A DNA stretch of 50,115 nt. Origin: Bacteroidales bacterium (GTDB lineage: Bacteria > Bacteroidota > Bacteroidia > Bacteroidales > UBA932). A program made the position numbers and the translations under genes. Positions 63 to 16,185 of the stretch are shown in pieces. Numbering within the stretch: the stretch's first letter is position 1; each line of letters starts with the position of its first letter. Location: assembly GCA_017429765.1 (NCBI GenBank), contig JAFROJ010000060.1, positions 1 through 50,115 on the forward strand, in the 5' to 3' direction. Below the pieces are notes generated by a model. The model worked only from the letters and a program-made list of their open reading frames with translations, was not told the origin of the DNA and made no database searches.

Positions 63-1313
63 TCAGCGTATTCCGAAATCGGCCTTGATGGCGTCGACGG
101 CGTCGAGCTTTTCCCAGCCGAAGAACTGGACTTCTTTCTCGACAGGCTGGCCGTCCTGGAAGACGGTGACTTTCTTGACGTAGGGATCGCGGCCGAAATG
201 GCCGTAGGCGGCTGTCGGGGAATAGATGGGGTTCTTGAGCCCGAACTTGCGTGTGATGGCCGCGGGACGGAGATCGAACAACCGGCCGATCTTGTGGGCG
301 ATCTCGGCGTCGGGGATTATTCCGGTCCCCCAGGTGTTCACGAATATGCTCACGGGTCTGGCGACGCCGATGGCGTACGCGACCTGGACCATCATCTTGT
401 CGGCCACGCCGGCGGCCACCATATTCTTGGCTATGTACCTGGCTGCATAGGCGGCGCTGCGGTCCACCTTGGAAGGATCCTTCCCGGAGAAGGCCCCGCC
501 GCCGTGAGCGGAATGACCCCCGTAGGTGTCCACGATTATCTTCCTGCCGGTCAGGCCGGTGTCCCCGGCCGGGCCACCGATCACGAACTTGCCGGTGGGG
601 TTGACATGCAGGATGAAATCCCCCTTGAACAGCGAGGCCGCGGCGGGGTCGAGCTGGGCTATCACCTTGGGCAGCAGGATATTCCTGACATCTGACTCAA
701 TCTTGGAGCGCATAGCCTCGTCGGTGTCGAACTCGTCGTGCTGGGTGGAAAGGACTATGGTGTGAACCCTCAAAGGCTTCCCGTCCTCTGAATATTCGAT
801 CGTGTACTGCGACTTGGAGTCCGGCCTCAGGTAAGGCATGAGGGAGGGCTCGTCGTGACGGATCCGGGCGAGAGTCCAGAGAGTGAGATGCGCGAGGTGA
901 AGGGCAAGGGGCATGTAGCTCTCCGTGTCCTTACAGGCGTAGCCGAACATCATGCCCTGGTCGCCGGCTCCCTGGTCCTCGGGATCCTCTCTCGAGACAC
1001 CCCGGTTGATGTCCTGGCTCTGCTCGTGGATCTCGGACAGCACCCCGCAGGAGTTGCCGTCGAACATGTACTCGGCCTTGGTGTAGCCGATGCGGTTGAT
1101 GACATCACGGACGGTGCCCTGGATGTCCACATAGGCGTCGGAACGGACCTCGCCCCCGACTATCACCAGGCCGGTGGAGCAGAAGGTCTCGCAGGCGACC
1201 TTGGACTCCGGGTCGCGGCGCAGGAACTCGTCAAGAATGGCGTCTGAAATCTGGTCGGCCACCTTGTCAGGATGGCCCTCGGAGACTGACTCCGAAGTGA
1301 AAAGATAATTCAT
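63..1313 (-). CDS. metK: S-adenosylmethionine synthetase
   Basis: Makes S-adenosylmethionine from methionine and ATP in the cytoplasm. The 416-residue product is slightly longer than the E. coli enzyme and is full length. Visible family signatures are the N-terminal [12 protein letters not shown] segment, the [12 protein letters not shown] motif near residue 120, and the glycine-rich [19 protein letters not shown] segment that forms part of the active site. The ATG lies about 65 bp downstream of a good Bacteroidota-type promoter (1379-1410), and no other gene shares the transcript. SAM made here would also be the methyl donor needed by the MetH-type activation domain encoded at 20435-21097, though that link is only metabolic. 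Identification is secure. Confidence 0.97.
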
Positions 1314-1378
1314 GTCTTTAGCATTTTTTAGACCGAGGTTGCAAGCGGTACAAATCCGTCCTCGGAAGTTTTCGGGTG

Positions 1379-1511: not shown

Positions 1512-3212
1512 CTACTCGGTCTTTCCGTTGAGGGAATATATCCACGCCTTGCCTGAAGATGTTTCGTAGGTCGAGCCATACTTGGTAAGGTGGCCGCAGA
1601 GGATGACGTTGTCACCGACGGCGATCTGGGAATCAGTTTCAACCCATTTTCTGTTACCAAGCCAAAGGACACGATAGGCTTCGAAATCTATAGCTTTGTC
1701 AGAATGATATTCGCCATCATCGGAAATCCAGAAAGTACCATTGCCGTATTGTGCGCCGAACTTGTTATCTATCTGGGAGATTATACCCTTCACAAAGACA
1801 TTGTTTTCGCAACCCGCATCTATGCAAGCCTTGGCGCCGGCCACATTGAAAGGAGCGTTGACATTGCCGACTCCGTTCGCATCATCGGTCACTCCGTTTA
1901 TACTGTAGATATAGGCCTTTCCGGAAGCGGTCTCGGAGATTCCGTTGTAAAGTGTGAGGTTGCCGAGGATCAGAACCTCGTCACCGACAGCAATCTGTGC
2001 ATTGCCTGCAGCCCATTTCTGGTTACCGAGGAAGAGAATGCGATAGGCTTCGAAATCATGGGTCTTGTCGCAGTTCTTATCATTCTCTCCGAGGAACTCA
2101 CCATCATCGGAGATATAGAAGGTTGCATTGCCATAGGATCCGAACTCTCCGTTATTAGTGATCCTGGATATCTTGCCCTTGACATAGAACTGATTGACAC
2201 TTGTACCGCTGAGAGTGTTGCAATAATCGATTGCCTGAGCGACGGTAAACGGATTGGCCAAAGTTCCCAAAAGACCTGCCTGAGCAACGACAAAAGTCAA
2301 TGATGAGGAATTCGAGCCACTGTAAGAACTGAAGATAACATTCCCGGTCCTGGAATCTCCCGCATTATTATCAAGCACCTTAAATTTGAAAACGGCCGTG
2401 TCCGCAGGGTTTGTCTCATAAATGGTTGCGACACCCTTGACATACTCAACGGAAGAATACTGGATCCAATCCTTTGCATTGTCACTTACCGTAAAGAAAG
2501 CTCCATTACCCTTATATGCGACCCTGACCTCAAAGTTGCCACCGTTGCTGTCGAATGAGGCATTGTCGGAATCTATCTTCAACAAAGACTTTTTAACGCT
2601 GATAAAAGAAGCGTCACTCAACTCTACGGTACCTTGGTAGACAACCTTCGGCCCTTCAACGGTAACCACGTCTCCAACCTCAATATTGAAGGAGGACCAG
2701 TTATAGCTTCCCTGAGAATCGACTGTACCGTAGATGTAGATTTGTCCGGTACCATCATCTAAGTACCAGTTTCCGTATGAAGTGTTGGCGATAGCTGTGC
2801 AAGTTCCTGTGACCCTGAATGTTTTACCTTCCGGCCCGCTGATGACATCCGCGCAGGAAGCGGATTCCGCTTCGACGACACCCTGGGTGAGATTGAGGTA
2901 CTGAGTCTTGTCTGCACAAGAAATCAGGAGTTCTGCCTCACGACCATAATCGGCCTTCTGAGCAGAGAAAGTGATTGTACTTGTACCTGTAGTTCCTGAC
3001 GAAGGATTAACAGTAAGCCAGCCAGGAACCCCGGAGATAGACCAATTGGAAGTTGCCTCTATTGTAGTACTCGTCGAACCTCCTGATAGAGGAATCGCCA
3101 GATAAGAAGACGACAGCTTAACCTCGTCGAGATAGTGATCTTCTTCCTTTTCGCAAGCCACGGCCACAGTGGCCAAGACAACGAATGAAGCAATGATATA
3201 CTTGAATTTCAT
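1512..3212 (-). CDS. BACON-domain, OB-fold-repeat surface lipoprotein (left operon)
   Basis: A 566-residue predicted lipoprotein. The signal peptide ends in a lipobox at about residues 16-20 (VAVAC). A BACON-type Ig-like domain follows (about 30-110, with the typical SNWSISGVPGWLTVNPSSG stretch). After it come several modules that look like OB-fold repeats, recognisable by recurring YGN-x-(T/W)(F/Y)-(Y/W)(I/L)-(S/D)DDG and IAVGDEVLI/VEGP segments; the last two modules are near-duplicates of each other. It starts 20 bp after the receptor at 3233-6580 and ends at a terminator, so the two genes form one operon. The gene at 10956 is its paralogue beside the paralogous receptor. In this phylum, lipoproteins paired with TonB-dependent receptors usually capture ligand at the cell surface; that role is inferred and the ligand is unknown. 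Codon use is more A/T-ending than in the right-hand paralogue. Confidence 0.75.
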   Translation of the reverse strand: MKFKYIIASFVVLATVAVACEKEEDHYLDEVKLSSSYLAIPLSGGSTSTTIEATSNWSISGVPGWLTVNPSSGTTGTSTITFSAQKADYGREAELLISCADKTQYLNLTQGVVEAESASCADVISGPEGKTFRVTGTCTAIANTSYGNWYLDDGTGQIYIYGTVDSQGSYNWSSFNIEVGDVVTVEGPKVVYQGTVELSDASFISVKKSLLKIDSDNASFDSNGGNFEVRVAYKGNGAFFTVSDNAKDWIQYSSVEYVKGVATIYETNPADTAVFKFKVLDNNAGDSRTGNVIFSSYSGSNSSSLTFVVAQAGLLGTLANPFTVAQAIDYCNTLSGTSVNQFYVKGKISRITNNGEFGSYGNATFYISDDGEFLGENDKNCDKTHDFEAYRILFLGNQKWAAGNAQIAVGDEVLILGNLTLYNGISETASGKAYIYSINGVTDDANGVGNVNAPFNVAGAKACIDAGCENNVFVKGIISQIDNKFGAQYGNGTFWISDDGEYHSDKAIDFEAYRVLWLGNRKWVETDSQIAVGDNVILCGHLTKYGSTYETSSGKAWIYSLNGKTE

Positions 3213-3232: not shown

Positions 3233-6200
3233 TTAGTTAAAGAAATACTTTATACCGACCGAGGCATACCAGCACTGGCCAAGAGCGTGGTAGGGAACGA
3301 AGGTCTTGGTGTTGCCACTGATGGCAGAAGGGGTAGAGAAGGTAGCATAACCTTCCGAGTCATTGCCTTCAAACTTAAGAATGCGGGCGTCTGTTCCGAT
3401 AGCGGGATTAAGGTACTTGCTGACACCCCAACTGGAGTTGAACAGGTTGAGCGCGTTCTTGAGATCGAAACCGAGTTGAAGGGTGTTCTTTGTCCCTCCG
3501 ACCTTGACAGTAAAGTCATGCTTGTAGCTGAAGTCAATCCTATGAACCCAAGGAGAATACAAGCTGTAACCTTCGGCATACTCGCCCTGATGCTTGCTCA
3601 GATACTTGTTATTGTGGACATAATCCATGAAACGGTCACGGCTGTCTGTGTTGACGAAACGGAACTGGTTGCTGGATACTTCCTGGTCAGTAGGAATGTA
3701 AAGTGCATCGTAGTTGTATCCATCACCGTTCATGTCATTCGTGGTCATGAAGGAGTAGTTGTAGCCTCCTCTCCAGGTCTCGTAAATGAAACTGAAGTGA
3801 TTGCCACTATTGTCGTGGTGGGTGAGGGACGCGACGACACGATCAGGAGTAACATACTGGGAATTGTGCAACTTGATGTAGTTCGGACCCTCAGATGTGG
3901 GGACATAGGTAAAGGCGGACTCGGCAGCTGAGCCTGGCATTCCGGTAACCTCCTTGCTGACTGTGTGAGTATAGGCAGCCATGAAGCTAAGGTTTTCAAT
4001 CGGCCTGGCGTTCAAGGTCAGGTTGCCTGACCATCCATATCCCTTGGAAGTATTCTCAAGGACAAAGGCCTTGGTGTTGTTCCTGAAGGAGGAAGGATAA
4101 ATCGGACGATTGTCGGCTCCGTTGAACCTTGCGAAACCACCCACGTCATCCATGCTCCAGTCAGAGATAGAAACCGCATTTATTGTTTTGTTGAATATCC
4201 CTTCAGCAGTGAGGCTCAACGGGAAGACAGTCGGGAAAGCGTAGTCAATTGCAAGCGATGTCTTCCAGACCTGAGGCATCTTGAATTTCGGATCCACAGC
4301 ACTTATTGAGGATGGAACGGTACCGTCTTCTGGAGATACTGTGCTGGGATAGCCCATGGAGACGAGTTTGTCGTAAAGGGCAGCTATCGTGGCTTTGCCG
4401 CTGGCATCCGTGACAAGTCCTCCGGAGAACTGTGAGAGAATCTCACTTATGCTGGAATACTTCTCCTTGACAGAGGCAGGAACAGCCTTGTTATAATTGA
4501 CAGAAGGACCGATCTGGGCCTGATACTGAACCATACCGCTGTTAGTAGGCATGTTTGTGAAGAACACTAGAGGGAGACGGCCGGAGAAGAGGCCGGTACC
4601 TCCGCGAACTTTCAAGCTCTTATCGCCCAGAACATCCCAGGAGAATCCGACTCGGGGAGAAACCGTGATCTTTGATGAAGGCCATGCGCCTGTGTCAATA
4701 TGTGTCTCCTTGTAGTCATGTGAAGCCGGATAGTAGGCAAGATCCTTGATGGCATTGTTCGTCATCAGGTCTGAATTATTGAAGAACAGGCCGTCGAGAC
4801 GAAGACCAGCGGTGAGCTTGAACTTAGGATTGACGTTCCACTCGTCCTGTCCATAGATGCCGGCCTTGTTGAAACGTACACGAGCGGCAGGCTTCTGTTC
4901 TCCGTCGTAGCCGTAGGTCAAGCAGACAACCTGAGGAGTACCACCATTGAGGAAGTCGTTCAGGGATTCATATCGATAATAGCCGGTTCCGTTCCTCATA
5001 TACTGGTTGTCAGCCATCTGGTATTCAAGGCTGACACCTGCGGTAATCTTATGTGCACCTGCATAGTAAGTCAAGTCGTCCTTGATGTTAGCAACAGTAT
5101 TGTGAACTGCATTGTTCCAGGTGAAGAGTTCGTAGCCAAGGGCCATGTAGTTGCCATTGTCCCCCCTGCCGTCAAGTATGTCTATGAAGGGGAATTCGTC
5201 AGAATTTGAACCGCGGACATCGTCCAGTTTGGAATATGTTGCCAGAAACTGGTTGGAGAGCTTGTCACTCAGGCGGCTGTTCAAGTCAACGGACCAAGTG
5301 TCCACGATGTTCTGCATAGAGTACATCGAATTGGCAAACGACATCGAATACAAAGACATACGGTTGTACGCCGAACGAGTACCCCCATCCATTGATGAGC
5401 CATTGGGTGAACTCCAGTAATTGTTCATGGTGCGGTTGTAGCGGACGGACAGATGATGCGCGTCCGTTATGTTCCAGTCGACACGGGCAAGAATCTTGGT
5501 GTTGTCCTCATTGGCAGGGAAATCTGTCCATGAGCCCGTGTCATAGCCGTACTTGCTCTTCACGTAATCAGAAACCATCTTGAGATCTGAAAGCGTGGTG
5601 CGTGAAACGTAGTTGTCCGCATCGGCATCAGCACTGTTTTCTGAGCCACTCCAACGGTTGACAACCGTAGGAATCTTAGACTGTTCAAAGTTAGCGAAGA
5701 AAAACAGCTTATTTTTGATGATCGGGCCGCCAAGGGTGAAACCATAAGTTGTATTGCGATCCTTGGTGCGTGCCCCGCTAATCTGGTCAGCCTCGATGGC
5801 ATCACCTCGCATGTTCTCATTGCGATGATAAACATATGCCGTACCCTTTAAGGTGTTGGTTCCGGACTTAGTGATGGCGTTAATACCTCCACCAATGAAG
5901 TTGGTCTGGCGAACATCATAAGGAGAGATCACGACCTGGAGCTCCTCGATAGCGTCAATCGAGATAGGGTTGCCACCACCGGGAAGGTTGGAACTCAAAC
6001 CGAAGTTGTTGTTGAAATTGGCACCATCCACAGTGAAGTTGGCAGTACGTCCGTCAGAACCGGCGAAACTCATTCCATTTCCTCCATAAGGCGAAAGCCT
6101 AGTGACATCGGTAATACTCCTGGACACGGTAGGCAGATTGGATATCTGCTGGTTGTTAATGTTGGTTGCGGCGCCTGTCTTCTCCACAGAGAACTTGCTG

Positions 6201-6580
6201 GCAGCAGACGTTGTCACAATTGCTGACTGAAGCATCTCATTGTCAGGATTTACCTGAGCATTGAGATTATAGGTCTCTGCGAGCTGAAGGGTGACATCGG
6301 TGTACTCAAGGGTCTGGTAGCCCAGGAAGGTGATGGTCACCTTGTAAGGACCTCCGACACGCATACCGTTGATCACGTAGTAACCATCCTGGTTGGCTAC
6401 TGCGGCATACTGCGTACCTGAAGGCAAATGTACAGCCACAACAGCCGCGCCGGTAAGGGGTTCGCCGTTCTCATCCTTGATGTTTCCGGCCAGACTGGAG
6501 GTAGTGACCTGCGCGAAGGCCGCGACCCCGATAAAGGCAGCCGCCAAGGCGGCTAATCCTTTTTTTAGAAAAAGAACCAT
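3233..6580 (-). CDS. Oar-like TonB-dependent outer-membrane receptor (left copy)
   Basis: An outer-membrane transporter of 1115 residues. A Sec signal peptide ends around AFAQ (residue 24). A carboxypeptidase-regulatory-like beta-sandwich follows (about 26-110, DENGEPLTGAAVVAV), then a plug domain with the conserved ISPYDVRQTNFIGGGINAIT stretch, and a long beta-barrel ending in aromatic YFFN. The Oar-type layout, with no SusD partner but with a BACON/OB-fold lipoprotein downstream, differs from the SusC at 46863. It is closely related to the receptor at 7675-10938, which runs the opposite way. The start ATG is only 5 bp from a 17-bp repeat that recurs inverted upstream of the other receptor. 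I find no TAnnTTTG promoter just upstream in the present orientation; the recombinase stop codon is 30 bp away on the same strand. It may therefore be silent, or read from the recombinase transcript. The substrate is unknown. Confidence 0.88.
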   Translation of the reverse strand: MVLFLKKGLAALAAAFIGVAAFAQVTTSSLAGNIKDENGEPLTGAAVVAVHLPSGTQYAAVANQDGYYVINGMRVGGPYKVTITFLGYQTLEYTDVTLQLAETYNLNAQVNPDNEMLQSAIVTTSAASKFSVEKTGAATNINNQQISNLPTVSRSITDVTRLSPYGGNGMSFAGSDGRTANFTVDGANFNNNFGLSSNLPGGGNPISIDAIEELQVVISPYDVRQTNFIGGGINAITKSGTNTLKGTAYVYHRNENMRGDAIEADQISGARTKDRNTTYGFTLGGPIIKNKLFFFANFEQSKIPTVVNRWSGSENSADADADNYVSRTTLSDLKMVSDYVKSKYGYDTGSWTDFPANEDNTKILARVDWNITDAHHLSVRYNRTMNNYWSSPNGSSMDGGTRSAYNRMSLYSMSFANSMYSMQNIVDTWSVDLNSRLSDKLSNQFLATYSKLDDVRGSNSDEFPFIDILDGRGDNGNYMALGYELFTWNNAVHNTVANIKDDLTYYAGAHKITAGVSLEYQMADNQYMRNGTGYYRYESLNDFLNGGTPQVVCLTYGYDGEQKPAARVRFNKAGIYGQDEWNVNPKFKLTAGLRLDGLFFNNSDLMTNNAIKDLAYYPASHDYKETHIDTGAWPSSKITVSPRVGFSWDVLGDKSLKVRGGTGLFSGRLPLVFFTNMPTNSGMVQYQAQIGPSVNYNKAVPASVKEKYSSISEILSQFSGGLVTDASGKATIAALYDKLVSMGYPSTVSPEDGTVPSSISAVDPKFKMPQVWKTSLAIDYAFPTVFPLSLTAEGIFNKTINAVSISDWSMDDVGGFARFNGADNRPIYPSSFRNNTKAFVLENTSKGYGWSGNLTLNARPIENLSFMAAYTHTVSKEVTGMPGSAAESAFTYVPTSEGPNYIKLHNSQYVTPDRVVASLTHHDNSGNHFSFIYETWRGGYNYSFMTTNDMNGDGYNYDALYIPTDQEVSSNQFRFVNTDSRDRFMDYVHNNKYLSKHQGEYAEGYSLYSPWVHRIDFSYKHDFTVKVGGTKNTLQLGFDLKNALNLFNSSWGVSKYLNPAIGTDARILKFEGNDSEGYATFSTPSAISGNTKTFVPYHALGQCWYASVGIKYFFN

Positions 6581-6585
6581 AATAA

Positions 6586-6602
6586 ACTAAAGTGAAGATT
6601 TA
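6586..6602 (-). repeat. Left inverted repeat (candidate recombination site)
   Basis: 17 bases reading TAAATCTTCACTTTAGT on the minus strand, identical to 7652-7668 on the plus strand. It sits 5 bp before the left receptor start codon and 8 bp past the recombinase stop codon. After a short unequal spacer, both copies run into ATGGTTC of the receptor gene. Confidence 0.85.
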
Positions 6603-6610
6603 GTCTTTCT

Positions 6611-7531
6611 TCAGAGTAATCCCATCATTTCTTCCACGCATGAGCGTTTCTGCTCCAATCCTGGATGGACATAAAGGTTAAGAGTGGTGCTGACGTCAGA
6701 GTGTCCGAGCAGCGCACTGAGTGTCTTGACGTCACATTTGCTCTCCATGCAACGAGTGGCGAATGTGTGCCGCAGGCTATGTACTCTTATGGAATGGAGC
6801 CCCAGCATAGTGGTGGCCTTATACAGAAGTCTGCGAATAGTCTGGGGATCTGTGGGTTTATCGCTGCAAGAAGTGAAGAACAGTTCTTCGCCTTTTCCCA
6901 TGCGTATGCGGATAAGTTTGTCAACCAAGCCGGACGGAATTGGCACTTCTCTGGCTGAATCCAATGTTTTTGGAGAGCCTACAACCAGCCTTGTCTTGTT
7001 CATTTTCTCGTAAGGCAGGTAAATCCTGTAAACGGTCCTGACGATATGGATCGCATGATTAAACAAGTCGATATCTTTCCATTTCAACCCGCAGACCTCC
7101 CCAATCCGCATCCCTGCCAGCACACATAGCATCAGGCCCATGTTCATAGGGTTAGGGTTGGAATCGAGATATCTGATCAGCTGTCTCTCTTCCTCAATTG
7201 GCATTACCTGCGGCAGACGACTTAGCTTCCTTGAGGGCGAAGCGATTTTTACAGGAAGGATGTCCATTAATCCCTCTTTGGCAATAAACTCCAGGATCAT
7301 CTTTGTCACAGTTAGTATTCCCCTGATCGTAGACCCGCTCATGCCGCTTCTATCCAAGCATCCGACAAATTCACGAACAGTCTGACTGGAGATTTCTCCT
7401 CTCTTCTCGAAAAATGGCCTGATGTGGGTGCGGACCGTGAGGGAATAAGCGGCCATTGACGAAGGCTTGACATGTAGGGCTTTCTCAGCCTCCCATAGTC
7501 TGAAGGCGTCTGCTATACTTCTTTGTGACAT
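6611..7531 (-). CDS. Tyrosine site-specific recombinase (integrase family)
   Basis: A 306-residue lambda-integrase-family recombinase that breaks and rejoins DNA through a covalent 3'-phosphotyrosine. The N-terminal SAM-like core-binding domain covers about residues 5-90. The catalytic domain has the full set of active-site residues: Arg142 (GMRIGEVCGLKW), Lys188 (SPKT), His251 and Arg254 (HSLRHT), His277 (LLGHSD) and nucleophile Tyr287 (LNLYVHP). It lies alone between two divergent receptor operons, inside a pair of inverted repeats, with no phage or transposition genes nearby. This is the setting of the tyrosine recombinases that invert surface-protein promoters in Bacteroides. Its DNA is clearly more AT-rich than the right-hand receptor operon, which suggests acquisition. 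No clear TAnnTTTG promoter was found upstream. Function as a DNA invertase rather than an integrase is inferred from context. Confidence 0.9.
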   Translation of the reverse strand: MSQRSIADAFRLWEAEKALHVKPSSMAAYSLTVRTHIRPFFEKRGEISSQTVREFVGCLDRSGMSGSTIRGILTVTKMILEFIAKEGLMDILPVKIASPSRKLSRLPQVMPIEEERQLIRYLDSNPNPMNMGLMLCVLAGMRIGEVCGLKWKDIDLFNHAIHIVRTVYRIYLPYEKMNKTRLVVGSPKTLDSAREVPIPSGLVDKLIRIRMGKGEELFFTSCSDKPTDPQTIRRLLYKATTMLGLHSIRVHSLRHTFATRCMESKCDVKTLSALLGHSDVSTTLNLYVHPGLEQKRSCVEEMMGLL

Positions 7532-7569
7532 GGTTAAATAGATTTAAGAATTAAAGAGATTAAGGAATA

Positions 7570-7601
7570 TTTTAGCATTTCGATTATTTGTTTTAATTTT
7601 G
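7570..7601 (+). promoter_or_regulatory. Promoter inside the invertible segment, facing the right receptor
   Basis: The -7 element is TAATTTTG (7594-7601), a match to TAnnTTTG. The -33 position has TTTTA (7570-7574), a 3/4 match to TTTG with 19-bp spacing. Predicted start is near 7608, giving a 67-nt leader that includes the inverted repeat. It is the only such element I find within the bounded segment in either direction. Confidence 0.6.
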
Positions 7602-7651
7602 TAGGATAATGCTCATGAATAGTGAGTTTTTTTGGTTGGACAGAGTAAAAT

Positions 7652-7668
7652 TAAATCTTCACTTTAGT
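7652..7668 (+). repeat. Right inverted repeat (candidate recombination site)
   Basis: TAAATCTTCACTTTAGT on the plus strand, the exact inverted partner of 6586-6602. It lies 6 bp before the right receptor ATG at 7675, within the leader transcribed from the promoter at 7570-7601. Confidence 0.85.
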
Positions 7669-7674
7669 ATAATT

Positions 7675-10600
7675 ATGGTTCATCTTATGAAAAAAGGATC
7701 AGCCACCTTGGTGGCGATCTTTGCGGGATTGGCGGCCTTCGCGCAGGTCACCACATCCAGCTTAGCCGGAAACATCAAGGATGAGACCGGTGAGCCATTG
7801 ACCGGCGCCGCCGTCGTGGCCATCCACACTCCTTCCGGCACCCAGTACGCCGCCGTGGCCAACGCGGACGGTAACTACATGATCAACGGTATGCGTGTCG
7901 GTGGTCCCTACAGGGTAGAGATCTCCTTCCTGGGTTACCAGTCGATTCTCTACACCGATGTGACTCTCCAGCTCGCCGAGACTTTCAACCTCAACGCCCA
8001 GCTCAAACCCGACAACGAGCAGCTTGAGTCGGCCGTCGTCATCGCCGCCCCGACATCCAAGTTCACCGCTGTCGTGAAGACCGGAGCGTCCACCAACATC
8101 TCGACCACCCAGATCACGGAGATGCCTACCGTCAGCAGGAGCCTGACCGATGTCGCCAAGCTCTCCCCTTACGGTGGTAACGGAATGAACTTCTCCGGCT
8201 CGTCCGGCCGTTCCGCCAACTTCACCGTTGACGGCGCTAACGTGAACAATAACTTTGGTCTTAGCACAGCCCTCCCCGGCGGTGGCAACCCTATCTCGAT
8301 CGACGCTATCGAGGAGGTCCAGATCGTGGTGTCCCCGTATGATGTGCGTCAGTCCAACTTCATCGGTGGAGGTATCAACGCTATCACCAAGTCCGGTACC
8401 AACACCCTGAAGGGTTCGGCTTACATCTATCACCAGAACGAGAACCTCCACGGAAGCAGGGTCGACGGGATAGACCTCGAGAGGAGCAAGGATCGCCAGA
8501 GCACCTACGGATTCACCCTGGGCGGCCCTATCATCAAGAACAAGCTCTTCTTCTTCGTCAACGCCGAGAAGTCCCCGAGCCCGTCCGAGATCATCAGGTG
8601 GAGGCCTTCCACCGACGGTGTGGCCGATGAGGAGAGGATGATCACCCGTGTCAAGAAGAGTGAGGCCGATCAGATGATCAGCTTCCTGAAGAGCAACTAC
8701 GGCTACGATCCCGGTTCCTACGACAACTACAACAAGAGCAACGGAAACGTCAAGCTCTTGGCCAGGATCGACTGGAACATCAGCCAGAAGCACAAGCTCG
8801 CCCTCAGGTACAACTACACCAACTCCAACCAGTGGAAGACCCCTTCCACCTCGCGTGATGTCCCTACCCTGAGCAACGGCATGGTCAGCAAGGACGGTCT
8901 TGTGTTCAGCAACTCCCTGTACAACCAGAACAACCAGATCTACACTCTCTCCGCCGATTTCAACAGCCGTCTCGGCGACAACCTGTCCAACCAGCTGCTT
9001 GTCACTTATTCCAACATCCAGGACGTGCGTGACAACGACGAGGACAACTTCTTCCCCTTCGTGGAGATCGCCGCGGGTGACCTCGGTGACAGCGGCAGCC
9101 CTTACATGGACTTCGGTACCGAGCTCTTCACCTACAGGAACAATGTCCAGAACACCGTTCTCAACATAAAGGACGATCTCACCTGGTACAAGGGAGCCCA
9201 CAAGATCACCGCTGGTCTCAGCTACGAGGCCCAGATGGCTCTCAACACCTACATGCGTAATGGTACCGGCACCTTCCAGTTCGCCAGCCTGAGCGACTTC
9301 TACAACGGGAACGCTCCTGTCTCCATGGCTTTCGACTGGGGATTCGATGGAGAAGAGTATCCTTCCGCCAAGGTCCGTTTCTACCAGATCGGCGCCTATG
9401 CCCAGGACGAGTGGAACGTGAACGACAAGTTCAAGCTCACCTACGGACTCCGTCTTGACAACCTGTCGTTCAACAACAACGACATCATGACCAACAACGC
9501 CGCCCTCGCGATCGACTACGGCGGACGCAGCGTCGACACCGGCAAATGGCCCAAGACCAGCATCCAGTTCAGCCCCCGCGTCGGGTTCTCATGGGATGTC
9601 CTTGGTGACAGGAGGCTCAAGATCCGCGGCGGCACAGGTCTCTTCGCCGGACGTATCCCTCTCGTGTTCTTCACCAATATGCCGACCAACGCCGGTATCG
9701 TGAAGGGCCGTCTGACCCAGATGAAGGATCCGGCCGTCCTGGGCAAGATGATCCAGAACGGCAAGCTTGTCACCGACCGCTGGGAGATCCTGAATATTCT
9801 CAACGGGATCAACTCCTCCAAGTACCCCAAGACCATCACTCCTGAGACCGCTCCCGCTCCCAGCGAGATCGCCGGTGTGGACTACAATTTCAAGATGCCT
9901 CAGGTCTGGAAGAGCTCAATCGCTGTCGACTACACCCTGCCTGTCGCCTTCCCTCTCACCTTCACCGCCGAGTACATCTTCAACAAGACCATCAACGGCG
10001 TGATGCTCAACAACTACAACATCACCGACGACAACTCTGGCTGGGCCACCTTCAACGGCGCCGACAGCCGTCACATCTATCCCGCCAGCTACAAGTACAG
10101 CAAGGTCGACGCCTATGTCCTGTCCAACACCAATAAGGGTTACGGCTCGATCGCCACTGTCTCCGTCAACTCCGAGCCTGTGAAGGGGCTGTTCCTTACC
10201 GCTTCCTACACCCACACCGTGAGCAAGGAAATCACCGGTATGCCCGGTTCGAACGCCTCCGCCGCCTGGAAATATATTCCTTCCGTGGACGGCCCGAACT
10301 TCAACATCCTTCACAACTCCTCTTACAACCTGCCTGACCGTATCATGGGTTCCGTCTCTTACACCGACAAGGCCCACAACCACTGGAGCCTCCTCTATGA
10401 GGGACTCCGCTATGGCGGCAACAGCTTCATCTATTCCAACGACATCAACGGCGACGGTAACGCCTACGACCTGATGTACATCCCCGCTGACAAGAGCGAG
10501 ATCCGCTTCATCGACTCCGACAACGAGGCCCGTTTCTGGGAGTTCCTCGAGCAGGACAAGTATCTCAGCGGCCACAAGGGCCAGTACGCCGAGGCCTATG

Positions 10601-10938
10601 CCACGACCCAGCCCTTCCGTCATGTCTTCGACTTCCGCTACGCCCACGACTTCACAGTCAAGATCGGCAGCACCAAGAACACTCTCCAGCTCAGCCTCGA
10701 TGTCCAGAACGCCGGCAACTTGTTCAACTCCCAGTGGGGTGTGGCCAAGACCTGGAGCCCCGACGTGCCCAAGGACACCAACGGCAACGGCAAGATCCTG
10801 AAGTACGAGCGTACCGATCCTGACGGAGTCCCTGTGTTCTCCACCACTGTTCCTTCGGGAGCCAAGACCTGGGACTATTCCCACACTCTCTCCAACTGCT
10901 GGTACATGCAGATCGGTGTCAAATATCTGTTCAACTAA
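7675..10938 (+). CDS. Oar-like TonB-dependent outer-membrane receptor (right copy)
   Basis: Outer-membrane transporter of 1087 residues from the ATG at 7675. The frame stays open back to 7609, but that stretch overlaps the promoter start region and the inverted repeat, and the signal peptide (MKKGSATLVAIFAGLAAFAQ) begins just after 7675; ATG 7687 is an alternative. The order is signal peptide, carboxypeptidase-regulatory-like domain (to about residue 110), plug with VSPYDVRQSNFIGGGINAIT, and a barrel ending in YLFN. It is paralogous to 3233-6580 along its whole length: N-terminus, plug and many barrel strands match, while several barrel segments that probably face outside differ, as expected for different ligands. 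Codons are almost all C- or G-ending, typical of highly expressed genes and unlike the left copy. The lipoprotein gene follows after 17 bp. The predicted promoter faces this gene, so it should be the expressed copy. Confidence 0.9.
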   Translation: MVHLMKKGSATLVAIFAGLAAFAQVTTSSLAGNIKDETGEPLTGAAVVAIHTPSGTQYAAVANADGNYMINGMRVGGPYRVEISFLGYQSILYTDVTLQLAETFNLNAQLKPDNEQLESAVVIAAPTSKFTAVVKTGASTNISTTQITEMPTVSRSLTDVAKLSPYGGNGMNFSGSSGRSANFTVDGANVNNNFGLSTALPGGGNPISIDAIEEVQIVVSPYDVRQSNFIGGGINAITKSGTNTLKGSAYIYHQNENLHGSRVDGIDLERSKDRQSTYGFTLGGPIIKNKLFFFVNAEKSPSPSEIIRWRPSTDGVADEERMITRVKKSEADQMISFLKSNYGYDPGSYDNYNKSNGNVKLLARIDWNISQKHKLALRYNYTNSNQWKTPSTSRDVPTLSNGMVSKDGLVFSNSLYNQNNQIYTLSADFNSRLGDNLSNQLLVTYSNIQDVRDNDEDNFFPFVEIAAGDLGDSGSPYMDFGTELFTYRNNVQNTVLNIKDDLTWYKGAHKITAGLSYEAQMALNTYMRNGTGTFQFASLSDFYNGNAPVSMAFDWGFDGEEYPSAKVRFYQIGAYAQDEWNVNDKFKLTYGLRLDNLSFNNNDIMTNNAALAIDYGGRSVDTGKWPKTSIQFSPRVGFSWDVLGDRRLKIRGGTGLFAGRIPLVFFTNMPTNAGIVKGRLTQMKDPAVLGKMIQNGKLVTDRWEILNILNGINSSKYPKTITPETAPAPSEIAGVDYNFKMPQVWKSSIAVDYTLPVAFPLTFTAEYIFNKTINGVMLNNYNITDDNSGWATFNGADSRHIYPASYKYSKVDAYVLSNTNKGYGSIATVSVNSEPVKGLFLTASYTHTVSKEITGMPGSNASAAWKYIPSVDGPNFNILHNSSYNLPDRIMGSVSYTDKAHNHWSLLYEGLRYGGNSFIYSNDINGDGNAYDLMYIPADKSEIRFIDSDNEARFWEFLEQDKYLSGHKGQYAEAYATTQPFRHVFDFRYAHDFTVKIGSTKNTLQLSLDVQNAGNLFNSQWGVAKTWSPDVPKDTNGNGKILKYERTDPDGVPVFSTTVPSGAKTWDYSHTLSNCWYMQIGVKYLFN

Positions 10939-10955
10939 TCTAACACAGGCACGAT

Positions 10956-13124
10956 ATGAAACTCAATAATATTCTCGCTTCATTATTCGCCGCGGCCGCT
11001 GTTCTTGTCGGTTGTACCGTGGATGAGCCTGTTTCCAAGCTCACAGGCTTGGAGGTCTCCAACGACTATGTCACTGTCGAGGCCGACACACAGACCAGCG
11101 CCACCATCACGGTGGTAGGTGACGAGTCCTGGACCGCCACACCTCAGGCGGACTGGGTCACTGTCAGCCCCGCCAATGGTTCCGCCGGCCAGAACGTCAC
11201 GATGACTATCACCGCCACTCCGGCCACCGCCGCGAGGAACACCGAGGTCCACATCAAGATGGGTGCGAAGACCAAGATCATCAGCTTCAACCAGAAAGCG
11301 CCGGCTGGAGTTGACACTCCTCCTTCCACCTGCGCCGAGGTCATCGCCGGTGAGAACATAACCTACAAGGTCGTCGGAACGGTCACCTCGATCGCCAACA
11401 CCCAGTACGGTAACTGGTATCTCGCCGATGACACCGGAGAGATCTACATCTACGGCACGTTCAACTCCAAGGGTGCCTATCCTAAGGATTCTGATGGCGG
11501 TTGGGACGCTTTCGGCATCGAGGTGGGTGACAAGGTCATGGTCGAGGGTCCCAAGACTGTCTATAACGGGACTGTCGAGCTTGTCGACGTCTCCTACACG
11601 ATTGTCCAGAAGTCCCTCATCGACGCCAGCCTCACAACGGAAGTCCTTACTCCCGAGGCCGGCACCGACACCCTGATCGTCAGCTCCAAGGTCCAGCCTG
11701 TCCTGGTCTCTGTCGACGCCGACTGGATCTCGGTCTCCGACCTGACTTCCGACGGCAACTATCTCCTTGTGTACAAGGCCAACAACCGTACCGCCGAGCG
11801 TAAGGCCACCATCACGATCAAGGCACCCGGCGCCGTCAAGGCTCTCACGATCACCCAGGAGGGTGTCGAGCCCACCGGACTCACCGTGACCGAGATCGTG
11901 GCTGAGGAGGACAACTCCATAGTCGAGACCCTCGAGTGCACCACAGTGGCCAAGACCACCAGGGGAATCGTCGTCTCCGACGGCACCACCGCCCTCTATG
12001 TCTACGGCAATAAGGTCGATGATGTCAAGGTTGGCGACAACCTCAAGATCTGGGCTAAGAAGACCACCTACAACGGTGTGCCCGAGCTTACCGACATCAC
12101 CGCCGTCGACGTGATCTCCAGCGGCAACGCCGTCAAGCATCCGGACGCCAAGGACATCACAGCCACCGCCACTGAGTACACCGCCGCTGTCGCTGAATAT
12201 GTCAGGCTCTCCGGGACCCTCACCGTCTCCGGCAACTACTACAACATCGCCCTTGACGGGGTCGACACGGGCACCAAGCAGGGAAGCATAGTCTATCCGA
12301 CCGACGATCTCAACGCCAAGAGCTTCGACGGCAAGAAGATCACCGTGACCGGTTACTACAACGGCCTTTCCGGCGGCGGCAAGTTCCTCAACATCGTCGC
12401 CACCAAGGTCGCCGAGTTTGTTGACAATCCCAAGGGTACCCTGAAGAACCCTTATGACGCCACAGAGCTCGCCAACCTGCTGAAGGGCGGCGCCACCTTT
12501 GATGAGCCCGTCTACGCCAGGGGAATCATCAACAAGATCGACAATGTCAACACCAGCTACGGCAACGCCCAGTACTGGCTCTCCACTGACGGCTCAGCCG
12601 CCGATCTTGAGGTCTATCGCGGCTTCTATTATGGCGGCGAGAAATTCACCTCCGAGGATCAGATCGCGGTCGGTGACGAGGTCGTTGTCTACGGCAAGGT
12701 GAAGGTCTATAAGGAGACCGCCGAGTTCGACGCCAACAACTACCTTGTGACGATCAACGGCAAGGCCGCTCCCGCCGGGACCGGCACGGCCGACGATCCT
12801 TACAACGTCACGAAGCTTGCCGGAATGCTTCTCGCCGGTGAGACTATCGAGGGTGAGGTTTACGCCAAGGGAATCATCTCCCAGATCGACAACGTGAACC
12901 TCCAGTACGGCAACGCCCAGTACTGGATCTCCGACGACGGCGGCAAGCTCTTCCAGATGGAGGTCTACCGCGGCTTCTGGTTCGGTGGCGAGAAATTCAC
13001 CTCCGAGGACCAGATCGCCCTCGGCGACGAGGTTGTCGTCTGCGGCAAGGTGAAGGTCTATAAGGAGACCCCCGAGTTCGACGCCAACAACAAGATCATC
13101 TCCCTCAACGGAAAGACTGAGTAG
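10956..13124 (+). CDS. BACON-domain, OB-fold-repeat surface lipoprotein (right operon)
   Basis: A 722-residue predicted lipoprotein with lipobox VLVGC near residue 20. A BACON-like domain (about 30-115) has DESWTATPQADWVTVSPANGSAGQ. A first OB-fold-like module (VVGTVTSIANTQYGNWYLADDTGEIYIYG) matches the left-operon lipoprotein closely. Then come a second Ig/BACON-like segment, a middle OB-like module (TTRGIVVSDGTTALYVYGNK) and two nearly identical C-terminal modules, each with a YGNAQYW(L/I)S(T/D)DG segment, a YRGF(Y/W)(Y/F)GGEKFTSEDQIA(V/L)GDEVVV segment and a C-terminal NGK. The extra modules make it about 155 residues longer than its paralogue at 1512-3212. It is cotranscribed with the receptor (17-bp gap) and closed by a terminator at 13146. 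It is probably the surface-exposed partner of the receptor; the ligand is unknown. Confidence 0.78.
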   Translation: MKLNNILASLFAAAAVLVGCTVDEPVSKLTGLEVSNDYVTVEADTQTSATITVVGDESWTATPQADWVTVSPANGSAGQNVTMTITATPATAARNTEVHIKMGAKTKIISFNQKAPAGVDTPPSTCAEVIAGENITYKVVGTVTSIANTQYGNWYLADDTGEIYIYGTFNSKGAYPKDSDGGWDAFGIEVGDKVMVEGPKTVYNGTVELVDVSYTIVQKSLIDASLTTEVLTPEAGTDTLIVSSKVQPVLVSVDADWISVSDLTSDGNYLLVYKANNRTAERKATITIKAPGAVKALTITQEGVEPTGLTVTEIVAEEDNSIVETLECTTVAKTTRGIVVSDGTTALYVYGNKVDDVKVGDNLKIWAKKTTYNGVPELTDITAVDVISSGNAVKHPDAKDITATATEYTAAVAEYVRLSGTLTVSGNYYNIALDGVDTGTKQGSIVYPTDDLNAKSFDGKKITVTGYYNGLSGGGKFLNIVATKVAEFVDNPKGTLKNPYDATELANLLKGGATFDEPVYARGIINKIDNVNTSYGNAQYWLSTDGSAADLEVYRGFYYGGEKFTSEDQIAVGDEVVVYGKVKVYKETAEFDANNYLVTINGKAAPAGTGTADDPYNVTKLAGMLLAGETIEGEVYAKGIISQIDNVNLQYGNAQYWISDDGGKLFQMEVYRGFWFGGEKFTSEDQIALGDEVVVCGKVKVYKETPEFDANNKIISLNGKTE

Positions 13125-13145
13125 GGGTGTAGAGACTCTTAAAAT

Positions 13146-13189
13146 GAAGGGAGGCCGGCCAGGAATGACCGGCTTCTCTTCTTTTTTTC
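13146..13189 (+). terminator. Rho-independent terminator of the right receptor operon
   Basis: An imperfect GC-rich hairpin (GCCGG / CCGGC core, extended by GAAG / CTTC pairs) ends in a run of seven T (13182-13188), about 20 bp after the lipoprotein stop codon. Confidence 0.75.
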
Positions 13190-13209
13190 ATATATTTACG
13201 AGTCAATAA

Positions 13210-16185
13210 ATGATTCCCGTGAATATGAGAAAAGCGTTTCTTCCCGTTCTGGCTGGAGTGGCTCTTATGATCGCTGGTTGCGGCCAGTTGTTCGAGCCGG
13301 TCGATTACGTCAATCCCTATGCCGGCAACATCAGCCACCTGCTGGTCCCGACCTACCCGACAGTGCAGCTTCCCAACTCGATGCTGCGGGTCTATCCCGA
13401 GCGTTCGGACTTCACTTCCGAATATCTTAACGGCCTGCCGGTCATAGTGACCAACCATAGGGAGCGCTCGGCCTTCAAGCTGTCGGTTGATGCCGGCCCT
13501 TCGACCCCTTCGACAGGCTCAGGGACCGGACCGGTCATCCCCGTGTCCTACGACAACGAGCGGCTGACGCCATATTCATTCGACGTGACCCTCGCGGACG
13601 GGAAGATCGAGGCGAGGTACGCCCTGTCCCATCAGAGCGCCGTGTATTCCCTGGAGAGCGACACCCCGCTCAAGATAATCCTTTCCAGCAGGGGAGGAGA
13701 GGTCACTTGGAACGGCGAGGCCCTTGAAGGTTGGCAGACTGTCGAGGACGAGACAAAGGTCTATGTGTTCATGGAGCCGGAGGTCGCCCCGGTCGCCATC
13801 GACACCGCCAGCGACAGGAGAAACAATTGGGTAACACTGAGTTTCAACGTGCCGTCGATAAAGCTCCGTTACGGGGTGTCGTTCATCGACGTCGCCCAGG
13901 CCAAGGCCAATCTCCGCAGGGAGATCGATGGCTTCGATGTTGACGCTGTGGCCGCGGAGGGCCGCAAGGTCTGGAACGAGACCCTCGGAAGAATCTCCGT
14001 GAAAGGGCCCGAGAAACGCAAGAGGGTGCTTTACACCTCCTACTACAGGACCTTCGAGAGGCCGGTCTGCCTGAGCGAGGACGGCCGTTATTGGAGCGCC
14101 TACGACAACGCCATCCACGAGGATGGCGGCACCCCCTTCTACACAGACGACTGGATCTGGGACACTTACAGGGCCGCCCACCCGCTCCGCACTCTGCTTG
14201 ACCAGCCTCTGGAGGAGAATATCCTAGCATCTTACCTTAGGATGGCCGACCAGATGGGGACGGGTTGGATGCCCACCTTCCCGGAGATCACCGGAGACTC
14301 GAGGAGGATGAACTCCAACCACGCCATCCCTTCCTTCGCCGACGCTGTCGCGAAAGGGATGAAAGTGGACGCCGCCGCGGCTTTCGAGGCCGGGCGCAAG
14401 GCGTTGAGGGAGAAGACGTTGGCCCCATGGTGCGGTAATCCCGCCGGCTTGATTGACGAGTTCTACTGGGAGAACGGCTACATCCCCGCCCTCCGGGAGG
14501 GTGAGGAGGAGACCGACCCTAATGTCCACGGTTTCGAGAAGCGCCAGCCGGTCGCCGTGAGCCTCGGGACCGCCTACGACTCCTGGGCCCTCTCCAAACT
14601 GGCCGAGGCCGCCGGGAAGCCCGAGGAGGCGGAATTCTACAGGAACTGGTCGTCCAACTACAGCCTGCTGTTCAATCCCGAGACCCTCTTCTTCCATCCC
14701 AAGGATTCCGAGGGGAATTTCATCCCCGACATCGACTACAACTTCCCCGGAGGCATGGGCGCCCGGGAATATTACGACGAGAACAACGCGTGGGTCTATC
14801 GCTGGGATGTCCAGCATGATATTCCCGGACTGGTCACTTTGATGGGCGGTCCCGATCGCTTCGTCAGGGAGCTGGACCGCATGTTCGCCACACCGCTGGG
14901 GAGAAGCAAATATTCATTCTACCAGAAGCTTCCGGATCACACCGGGAACGTCGGCCAGTTCTCGATGGCCAACGAGCCTTCGCTGCATGTGCCTTATCTC
15001 TACAATTACGCCGGAGCGCCCTGGAAGACACAGAAGAGAGCCCGTCAGATGCTTGACACTTGGTTCAGGGACGATTTGATGGGGGTCCCCGGTGACGAGG
15101 ACGGCGGCGGAATGACCTCATTCGTGGTCTTCACCTCCCTCGGTCTCTATCCCGTGACACCCGGCGATCCGGTTTATACCATCGGTAGCCCGGTCTTCCC
15201 CGAAGCTGAGATGAGGCTTTCTAACGGCAAGACATTCAAGATTATAGCCAAGGATGTCTCGGACGCCAACAAGTACATCCAGAGCGCGACTCATAACGGT
15301 GAGCCGCTGAATGGTCCTTGGATCACCCACGAGGAGATCATGGCGGGAGGGACCTTGACCCTTGAGATGGGTTCTCTGCCGAATAAGGAATGGGGAGCGG
15401 TCACGCCCCAGGACTCGAAGGAATGGAACGCCGCCGGTTGGGAATGGAAAGAGGCCGGCGACGGGATTGAATATTCCTACGCCCAGTTCCCGTTCAGGGG
15501 CAAGACACAGAGCGTCAGCATCGCCCGTTATCCCGCCTCAAAGTTTGAGACTTCACTGGTGCACGCCCCGGGCGACTCCGCCAACACCACCGACTCCCTC
15601 GCCCGCAGGATCGGAGCCCGTATCGCGTTGAACGGCAGTTATTTCAACATGAGAAGGCTTATTCCCCACACCTTCTTCGCGATCGACGGGGAGGTGCTTG
15701 GGGAGACTCCCAAGACGGAGCTGCTCCGCTCCAACGGAGTGCTCGCCATAAAGGATCGTGAGGGCCATAACCTCTCGATCGTGCCTTATGACTCAACCAA
15801 GAGGGAGACTTACAGGACTGAATATTATTCCTCCCTGGCCTCCGGCCCTATTCTCAGGCTGGACGGCAAGGTTCCCGACTTCCCCCATGACAAGTCCTTC
15901 TTCGACATGCGCCACCCCAGGACCTTTATCGGATGGGATGAGAAGGGAATGGTCTACATGATCGTGGTCGACGGGCGCTTCCCCGGCCAGGCCGACGGGA
16001 TGAGCGTTCCCGAGCTCGCCGCGGTTTGCAGGCTCCTCGGTCTTAAGGACGCCATGAATCTGGACGGGGGAGGCTCCTCCACCCTTTGGACTGAGAAGAC
16101 AGGGATCATCAACTTCCCCTATGACAACCGGAAGTTCGACCACGAGGGAGCCCGCAAGGTACCTAACATAGTAGCTGTCAGGTAG
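13210..16185 (+). CDS. Lipoprotein fusion: GH92 alpha-mannosidase + phosphodiester glycosidase (NAGPA)
   Basis: A 991-residue lipoprotein (lipobox IAGC near residue 23; ATG 13225 is an alternative start). Residues about 30-745 are a GH92-type exo-alpha-mannosidase: opening DYVNPYAG, WDTYRAAHPL, Glu524 in the YDENNAWVYRW motif at the family's catalytic-acid position, the acidic cluster Asp629-Glu630-Asp631 in GDEDGGGM that matches the general-base region, and LYPVTPGDPVYTIGSP. Residues about 760-991 are a phosphodiester glycosidase domain with the hallmark NLDGGGSST (950-958), the family of the eukaryotic uncovering enzyme that removes GlcNAc from GlcNAc-phospho-mannose. Some GH92 members cleave mannose-phospho-mannose, so this fusion may act on phosphorylated mannans; that is inference. 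A repeat-derived insert lies at about residues 95-107. A lone gene with at best a weak promoter-like TATATTTA at 13191-13198. Confidence 0.85.
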   Translation: MIPVNMRKAFLPVLAGVALMIAGCGQLFEPVDYVNPYAGNISHLLVPTYPTVQLPNSMLRVYPERSDFTSEYLNGLPVIVTNHRERSAFKLSVDAGPSTPSTGSGTGPVIPVSYDNERLTPYSFDVTLADGKIEARYALSHQSAVYSLESDTPLKIILSSRGGEVTWNGEALEGWQTVEDETKVYVFMEPEVAPVAIDTASDRRNNWVTLSFNVPSIKLRYGVSFIDVAQAKANLRREIDGFDVDAVAAEGRKVWNETLGRISVKGPEKRKRVLYTSYYRTFERPVCLSEDGRYWSAYDNAIHEDGGTPFYTDDWIWDTYRAAHPLRTLLDQPLEENILASYLRMADQMGTGWMPTFPEITGDSRRMNSNHAIPSFADAVAKGMKVDAAAAFEAGRKALREKTLAPWCGNPAGLIDEFYWENGYIPALREGEEETDPNVHGFEKRQPVAVSLGTAYDSWALSKLAEAAGKPEEAEFYRNWSSNYSLLFNPETLFFHPKDSEGNFIPDIDYNFPGGMGAREYYDENNAWVYRWDVQHDIPGLVTLMGGPDRFVRELDRMFATPLGRSKYSFYQKLPDHTGNVGQFSMANEPSLHVPYLYNYAGAPWKTQKRARQMLDTWFRDDLMGVPGDEDGGGMTSFVVFTSLGLYPVTPGDPVYTIGSPVFPEAEMRLSNGKTFKIIAKDVSDANKYIQSATHNGEPLNGPWITHEEIMAGGTLTLEMGSLPNKEWGAVTPQDSKEWNAAGWEWKEAGDGIEYSYAQFPFRGKTQSVSIARYPASKFETSLVHAPGDSANTTDSLARRIGARIALNGSYFNMRRLIPHTFFAIDGEVLGETPKTELLRSNGVLAIKDREGHNLSIVPYDSTKRETYRTEYYSSLASGPILRLDGKVPDFPHDKSFFDMRHPRTFIGWDEKGMVYMIVVDGRFPGQADGMSVPELAAVCRLLGLKDAMNLDGGGSSTLWTEKTGIINFPYDNRKFDHEGARKVPNIVAVR
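13493..13529 (+). repeat. In-frame repeat insert within the GH92 coding sequence
   Basis: The stretch contains CCCTTCGAC and then CCCTTCGACAGGCTCAGGG, bounded by CCGGCCCT and AGGGACCGG, which pair as an imperfect stem. It encodes a low-complexity PSTPSTGSGTGP segment in a loop of the mannosidase N-terminal domain. Sequence of this type looks like a dispersed repeat rather than enzyme core. Confidence 0.5.

What the first reader, a model, noticed from the sequence alone, without database searches (positions are those of the whole stretch)
6586..7668. Self-carried invertible switch between two paralogous receptor operons
Two Oar-like receptor + BACON lipoprotein operons point away from each other. 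A perfect 17-bp inverted repeat lies 5-6 bp before both start codons. The segment between carries a complete tyrosine recombinase and one TAATTTTG promoter that faces the right receptor; none was found facing the left one. Flipping would exchange which operon is expressed. Tyrosine recombinases that invert promoters or shuffle SusC-like genes are known in Bacteroides. A cassette in which the recombinase rides inside the flipped segment, toggling two receptor/lipoprotein operons, is to my knowledge not a standard case.
Basis: partly seen in the sequence, partly recalled or inferred. Interest (0 to 1): 0.87.

Follow-up and report, generated by a model that had tools for sequence, protein, structure and literature searches.

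The report
Self-carried flip switch for two receptors
A gut-type bacterium appears to carry a short DNA segment, holding its own recombinase gene and one promoter, that can flip to decide which of two surface receptor operons is switched on; some relatives carry the same layout at other receptor genes.

Summary
A perfect 17-bp inverted repeat (6586-6602 / 7652-7668) brackets an intact tyrosine recombinase (6611-7531, -) and a promoter (-7 box at 7594, +), 5 and 6 nt before the start codons of two divergent Oar-like receptors; no further copy was found in the genome at up to 3 mismatches. The leader is 17/17 identical between two 58%-identical receptors but 9-11/17 in seven relatives' Oar leaders. 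The promoter matches the native promoter of the metK-adjacent Oar gene in 11 of 15 relatives' sequences. Both receptors show low dN/dS. The recombinase lies in a supported clade of 19, 18 beside a receptor gene and one beside a receptor fragment; 4 further receptor-linked rows fall outside it. Four loci, the window included, have two full-length divergent receptors around the recombinase. At one orthologous locus the recombinase-plus-control block occurs in both orientations across species. Best reading: a Hin-like, self-carried flip-flop built on a tyrosine recombinase. Inversion is inferred: no reads, no conspecific genome. Invertible SusC/SusD genes are known in Bacteroides, so this is a new variant of a known kind.

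The parts
6586..6602 (+). Left inverted repeat / putative crossover site; outer end 5 nt before the left receptor start codon. With two adjoining bases (to 6604) it reads as 6-bp inverted half-sites around a 7-bp spacer (ACTAAA-GTGAAGA-TTTAGT)
7652..7668 (-). Right inverted repeat, 17/17 identical in inverted orientation; outer end 6 nt before the right receptor start codon; same 7-bp spacer, one half-site differs by one base
6603..7651 (.). Putative invertible segment, 1049 bp (recombinase plus promoter)
   Evidence: inversion inferred
6611..7531 (-). Tyrosine recombinase, 306 aa, Phage_integrase family; member of a receptor-linked clade
7566..7609 (+). Promoter region (-7 box TAATTTTG at 7594-7601), homologous to the native promoter of metK-adjacent Oar genes in relatives; faces the right receptor in the present orientation
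3233..6580 (-). Left Oar-like TonB-dependent receptor (OarL, 1115 aa), same type as the metK-adjacent Oar of close relatives (85% to G033); no left-facing promoter motif seen in the present orientation
1512..3212 (-). BACON-domain partner of OarL (566 aa)
7675..10938 (+). Right Oar-like TonB-dependent receptor (OarR, 1087 aa), 58% identical to OarL; its type is the one found at the same place in G211
10956..13124 (+). BACON-domain partner of OarR (722 aa)

Best explanation
A self-carried DNA flip-flop. The 1049-bp segment between the 17-bp repeats carries a tyrosine recombinase and the receptor promoter. The recombinase acts on the two repeats and inverts the segment, so the single promoter faces either OarR-BACON (present state) or OarL-BACON. 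In each state the other receptor lies just downstream of the recombinase gene and gets at most read-through. Shown: anatomy, rarity and excess conservation of the repeat, promoter ancestry, low dN/dS of both receptors, the recurring layout in relatives, and both block orientations at an orthologous locus across species. Inferred: that the enzyme acts on these sites, that inversion is reversible in this species, and that expression is near-exclusive. The likely benefit is to alternate two surface receptor types that differ mainly outside the N-terminal ~250 residues, for example against phage or for ligand choice (inference).
For: Repeat exact, 0 of 3000 shuffles as long, two copies in the genome. 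Leader 17/17 between paralogs of 58% aa identity, but 9-11/17 in all 7 relatives compared, with no excess N-terminal identity inside this genome. The 44-nt promoter region matches 30-36 of 44 bases at a constant place, 83-97 nt before the Oar start, in 11 of 15 relatives' sequences, each above all 500 shuffles; G250, G025 and both G302 copies do not match; BLAST found it independently upstream of Oar in G033 and G083 (E about 1e-4). Relatives L150, L152, L155 and L169 hold metK | Oar | BACON | GH92; G033 has an OarL-type and G211 an OarR-type receptor there. dN/dS 0.07-0.13 for OarL (three pairs) and 0.125-0.23 for OarR (two pairs) (dS 0.8-1.5, near saturation in most). Recombinase in a clade with support 100 of 19 rows, 18 receptor-linked, the 19th with a receptor fragment at a contig end. 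Of 81 recombinase loci with fetched flanks, 22 have a receptor N-terminus within 1 kb transcribed away from the recombinase (L077, fetched, makes 23); all 23 have one on the recombinase 5' side and 8 also on the 3' side. Two full-length receptors: window, L103, L105, L275; one receptor cut by a contig end: L055, L068, L102; decayed second receptor: L112. At the 'aro' locus the conserved control block precedes the Y-side receptor in 7 and the aro-side receptor in 3 of 10 genomes; L103 and L105 are anchored on both flanks and opposite.
Against: No inverted molecule was seen: no reads, and no near-identical genome in the relatives searched (10 other genomes of 150 matched, by short pieces only). 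Cross-species opposite orientation could be old rearrangement; the L103 and L105 recombinases are only 50.5% identical. At the aro locus the putative spacers are not identical on the two sides, unlike in the window. Sites at the three locus types share no obvious sequence. 15 of 23 receptor-linked loci have a receptor on one side only, and decayed second receptors are seen (L051, L077, L107, L108, L112), so the switch is often lost or absent. Four receptor-linked recombinases, among them two-receptor L275/L242, lie outside the clade. Strict TAnnTTTG counts are weak: 10 of 22 recombinase-5' sides against 5.3 expected, 0 of 7 on 3' sides against 1.0. A strict-motif scan found no promoter for the recombinase itself.
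Confidence: 0.8

Rival explanations
1. Locked relic: an inverted pair of receptors with a recombinase that once flipped but is now fixed, OarR on and OarL off or on by read-through from the recombinase.
For: One-sided or decayed loci are common in relatives: 15 of 23 one-sided; L068 recombinase split, L077 recombinase fused to a SusD C-terminus, L112 SusC N-terminus joined to a SusD remnant. No conspecific inverted state seen.
Against: In the window the recombinase, both receptors and both BACON genes are intact ORFs; both receptors have low dN/dS; the two sites are still identical while relatives' leaders are at 9-11/17.
Confidence: 0.13
2. The repeat is only leftover homology from inverted duplication of a receptor gene; the recombinase is a passer-by from a mobile element.
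For: Receptors are 76-77% inverted copies near their 5' ends and the repeat adjoins them. Distant relatives of the recombinase occur in viral contigs (up to 39% identity among the 80 loci kept of 472).
Against: Leader 17/17 against coding identity near 75% and relatives' leaders of 9-11/17; no direct repeats found in 6400-7850; recombinase clade consistently beside receptors.
Confidence: 0.05
3. Inversion occurs by general homologous recombination between the receptor 5' ends, the recombinase not being needed.
For: Arms in L055, L102, L103 and L105 are long and 91-98% identical.
Against: In the window coding identity beside the repeat is only about 75% at DNA level and shows no conversion signature.
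Confidence: 0.02

Closest known systems
Hin / H segment of Salmonella
   Same: Recombinase gene and promoter ride together inside the flipped segment; two alternative surface products result (PMC5903667 passages, name Hin as a recombinase within the segment; the rest recalled).
   Different: Hin is a serine recombinase; its second product is controlled in trans through a repressor (recalled), whereas here one promoter would face either of two adjacent operons.
Tsr0667 SusC/SusD shufflons of Bacteroides fragilis
   Same: DNA invertase controlling SusC/SusD-family outer-membrane receptors (PMC4747536 passages; tyrosine class recalled).
   Different: Tsr0667 acts on three SusC/SusD clusters and nine other regions, shufflon-type; here one recombinase and two sites, carried inside the segment, with Oar/BACON operons.
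Nutrient-receptor shufflon of Bacteroides thetaiotaomicron (BT2260-BT2268 region, numbers recalled)
   Same: Phase-variable receptor genes; PMC12548429 (passages) says one such shufflon shifted after phage exposure, though deleting the genes did not support a direct phage-receptor role.
   Different: The primary paper is not held, so whether its recombinase rides inside an inverted segment could not be checked.
Mpi-family invertase
   Same: An Mpi-family gene lies between two inverted Oar copies in relative G302.
   Different: Serine class; in B. fragilis one Mpi inverts 13 regions (PMC4747536 passages).

Membership tests
Tyrosine recombinase family | Phage_integrase domain and catalytic R-K-H-R-H-Y set | tested here: met
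   Pfam E 5.9e-27; residues invariant in 18 sequences (set recalled)
Invertible promoter segment (inverton) | Inverted repeats flanking a promoter upstream of a gene | tested here: met
Invertible promoter segment (inverton) | Both orientations present in one population | not testable with these tools
   No reads, no conspecific genome found; across species both orientations at the aro locus
Hin-type self-carried switch | Recombinase gene lies inside the inverted segment | tested here: met
   6611-7531 between the repeats
Hin-type self-carried switch | Serine recombinase | tested here: not met
   Tyrosine class: works like Hin, not a member
SusC/SusD shufflon of Bacteroides (Tsr0667 type) | Several sites and multiple inversions, recombinase acting also at distant loci | tested here: not met
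   Only two sites found in the genome at up to 3 mismatches (genome 96% complete, so a missed copy is possible)
SusC/SusD receptor pair | SusD-like partner of the receptor | tested here: not met
   Window partners are BACON proteins and receptors are Oar-like; SusD-type partners occur at the related aro and SusC2 loci (by similarity to partner genes I labelled SusD from position and recall)

The most novel reading that the evidence does not exclude
A dedicated clade of tyrosine recombinases has repeatedly settled between receptor operons in this genus (Oar next to metK, SusC/SusD next to aromatic-pathway genes, SusC/SusD in a glycoside-hydrolase locus). Each time it takes over the local promoter and leader to make a self-carried two-receptor flip switch, with a different site each time. 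The metK-Oar locus became an inverted receptor pair with an invertase a second time, independently, with an Mpi-type serine invertase in G302.
Probability: 0.35. Interest if true: 0.76.

Novelty: new variant of a known kind. Interest (0 to 1): 0.62.

Why it matters
It would show a compact one-promoter, one-enzyme, two-output design in uncultured gut bacteria, and that alternative receptor types found separately in related species can be held in one cell as a switch. It makes testable how such bacteria vary receptors against phages or for nutrients, and why related recombinases would use unrelated sites at different loci.

Tried and rejected
Simple inverted-duplication relic: judged unlikely on leader versus relatives' identity and absence of raised N-terminal identity. 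Integrated mobile element: no direct repeats in 6400-7850; viral-contig relatives only up to 39% identical among the 80 loci kept of 472. A common crossover motif for all loci: none found; the window site, and one reading of the aro site, show half-sites around 6-8 bp, but aro spacers differ between sides and the SusC2 site fits poorly (by eye). Genus-wide promoter-motif count: weak, not used as main support. Named organisms: the first genome-contig scan, with the single protein, found nothing; the second, with an alignment, kept 80 of 578 loci, mostly Bacteroidales MAGs plus flavobacteria, sphingobacteria and some MAGs labelled Clostridia or others. Recombinases near contig ends: 9 of 23 within 3 kb against 4.6 expected (the 23 are the receptor-linked loci other than the window, L107 included); only suggestive, since repeats alone break assemblies. 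Flanks were fetched for 81 of the 123 recombinase matches listed (my count; 42 not fetched). My first ORF picture lost the recombinase ORF in several of these loci, so the count was redone by domain, where all 81 carry it. Structure prediction was not run. Six papers were looked at in passages only; [quoted passage not shown]

Full report
Observation. It lies 5 and 6 nt before the aligned start codons of OarL (6580) and OarR (7675). The segment between the repeats holds a complete 306-aa tyrosine recombinase and a promoter box TAATTTTG at 7594; a second match to the motif, at 6913, lies inside the recombinase gene and also faces right; none faces left in 6560-7700. The recombinase and OarL are on one strand with 30 nt between, so the 'off' receptor may get read-through.

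Is the repeat just leftover homology? The receptors are inverted copies of about 75% DNA identity in their 5' parts and 58% identical in protein. But the leader is 17/17 between them, while the best match in the Oar leaders of seven relatives is 9-11/17, even in G033, whose receptor is 85% identical to OarL. N-terminal identity between OarL and OarR is no higher than between L-type and R-type receptors of different species, so there is no sign that general gene conversion keeps the leader alike. The leader thus looks kept as a short site. Read in context it resembles a tyrosine-recombinase core: 6-bp inverted half-sites around an identical 7-bp spacer; this reading is mine and untested.

Where the parts come from. 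OarL-like genes are widespread: 196 of 300 genus genomes match at E up to 1e-200 (only two candidates per genome were scored, so copy number is not tested). In L150, L152, L155 and L169 the order is metK, divergent Oar, BACON gene, GH92. The window's promoter region matches 30-36 of 44 bases, 83-97 nt before the Oar start, in G033, G090, G248, G221, G017, G042, G336, G083, G205, G049 and G211 (11 of 15 sequences; none of 500 shuffles as good for any of these), and not in G250, G025 or the two G302 copies. G033 has an L-type and G211 an R-type receptor at this place. The window holds both: OarR next to GH92 with the native promoter, and OarL-BACON inverted between metK and the recombinase. Both coding sequences show purifying selection (dN/dS 0.07, 0.10, 0.13 for OarL against G033, G090, G083; 0.125 and 0.23 for OarR against G211 and G276; dS near saturation in most), which fits use of both.

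The layout recurs. Homologs of the recombinase were sought in 400 genus genomes (97 with a match at E up to 1e-50); flanks of 81 of the 123 listed matches (my count) were fetched. By domain search 22 of these 81, and L077, have a receptor N-terminus within 1 kb transcribed away from the recombinase. All 23 have one on the recombinase 5' side; 8 also on the 3' side (window, L055, L068, L102, L103, L105, L112, L275). Rows were fetched because they resemble the window's recombinase, so the tree is not a random sample. Two full-length divergent receptors flank the recombinase in the window, L103, L105 and L275; L242/L275 has a 35-nt repeat spanning both receptor starts and its longer gap on the recombinase 3' side. 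L055, L068 and L102 have one receptor cut by a contig end. Outside the genus the linkage was hardly seen: 0 of 8 order-level loci, and among 80 genome-contig loci 6, of which only L215, a Prevotella-labelled MAG with one receptor, is not a contig already in the set.

Both orientations. At the 'aro' locus (DAHP-synthase gene, named from recall of its sequence, on one side and gene Y on the other) a conserved control block lies between recombinase start and receptor in all 10 genomes aligned; it precedes the Y-side receptor in 7 (L048, L049, L077, L101, L102, L104, L105) and the aro-side receptor in 3 (L068, L100, L103). L048, L077, L101, L103 and L105 are anchored on both flanks, L049 and L104 on the aro side only, L068, L100 and L102 on the Y side only. 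L103 and L105 have both flanks and two intact receptor operons each, in opposite states, but their recombinases are only 50.5% identical. L101 and L103 recombinases are 78.8% identical and opposite, but L101 has only one receptor. These are different species, so this shows that the block has turned over in evolution, not that it flips within a culture.

Against. No reads, no second genome of the species. A second receptor is not seen in 15 of 23 loci and is visibly decayed in several. Spacers differ between sides at the aro locus, and sites at the three locus types look unrelated, which is unexplained. The strict promoter motif is found on 10 of 22 recombinase-5' sides against 5.3 expected and on 0 of 7 3' sides against 1.0.

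A second invertase at the same locus. In G302 two Oar-BACON operons, 99% identical in DNA over the first 125 codons and 96% over the next 125, then 66-85%, flank metK and an Mpi-family serine invertase (NCBIfam NF009949, 326.7 bits against a cut-off of 272). Both copies keep the -7 region inside the repeat, and only the left copy has a plausible -33 element by eye; whether it switches is not known.

Known systems. Papers were seen as passages only. PMC4747536: Tsr0667 drives shufflon-type inversions at three SusC/SusD clusters and nine other regions of B. fragilis; Mpi inverts 13 regions. PMC12548429: B. thetaiotaomicron has nutrient-receptor shufflons. PMC5903667: recombinases are occasionally within the segment, as Hin. 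PMC12632263, PMC11868660 and PMC13114119: general context. In seven searches of the open library, from listings, abstract starts and these passages, I saw no description of a tyrosine recombinase carried inside a segment that toggles two divergent receptor operons; most subscription papers, including the B. thetaiotaomicron primary paper, could not be read, so this is not proof of absence.

Verdict. A self-carried flip-flop that works like Hin but uses a tyrosine recombinase and one promoter for two adjacent receptor operons: a new variant of a known kind, confidence 0.8 for the mechanism.

Noticed in passing
L151 (G302:C3) 4780-13720: Two inverted Oar-BACON operons flank metK and an Mpi-family serine invertase (9720-10370, -); arms are 299/300 identical at the inner end and identity falls with distance. 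An independent invertase at the same receptor locus.
   Followed up: partly
window 1308-1369: SAM-II riboswitch upstream of metK, in what is the metK-Oar intergenic region of relatives.
   Followed up: no
window 10956-13124: The right BACON protein has weak OB-fold matches and a partial match to an ExeM/NucH nuclease model well below its cut-off; the pair may handle nucleic acid, or this is only an OB-fold.
   Followed up: no
L077 9552-10139: Recombinase ORF whose last 35 residues match the C-terminus of the local SusD-type gene (72%), perhaps a trace of a lost second receptor operon.
   Followed up: partly
L112 2459-3244: SusC N-terminus joined to a SusD remnant on the recombinase 3' side: a decayed second receptor.
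   Followed up: partly
L150 7497-13047: G033 pairs an L-type Oar with a BACON protein closer to the right-hand one of the window: receptor and partner types seem to reassort between species.
   Followed up: no
L055, L068, L100, L102, L107, L109, L112, L133, L270: 9 of 23 receptor-linked recombinases (window not counted) lie within 3 kb of a contig end (4.6 expected), as assembly breaks at inverted repeats would give.
   Followed up: partly
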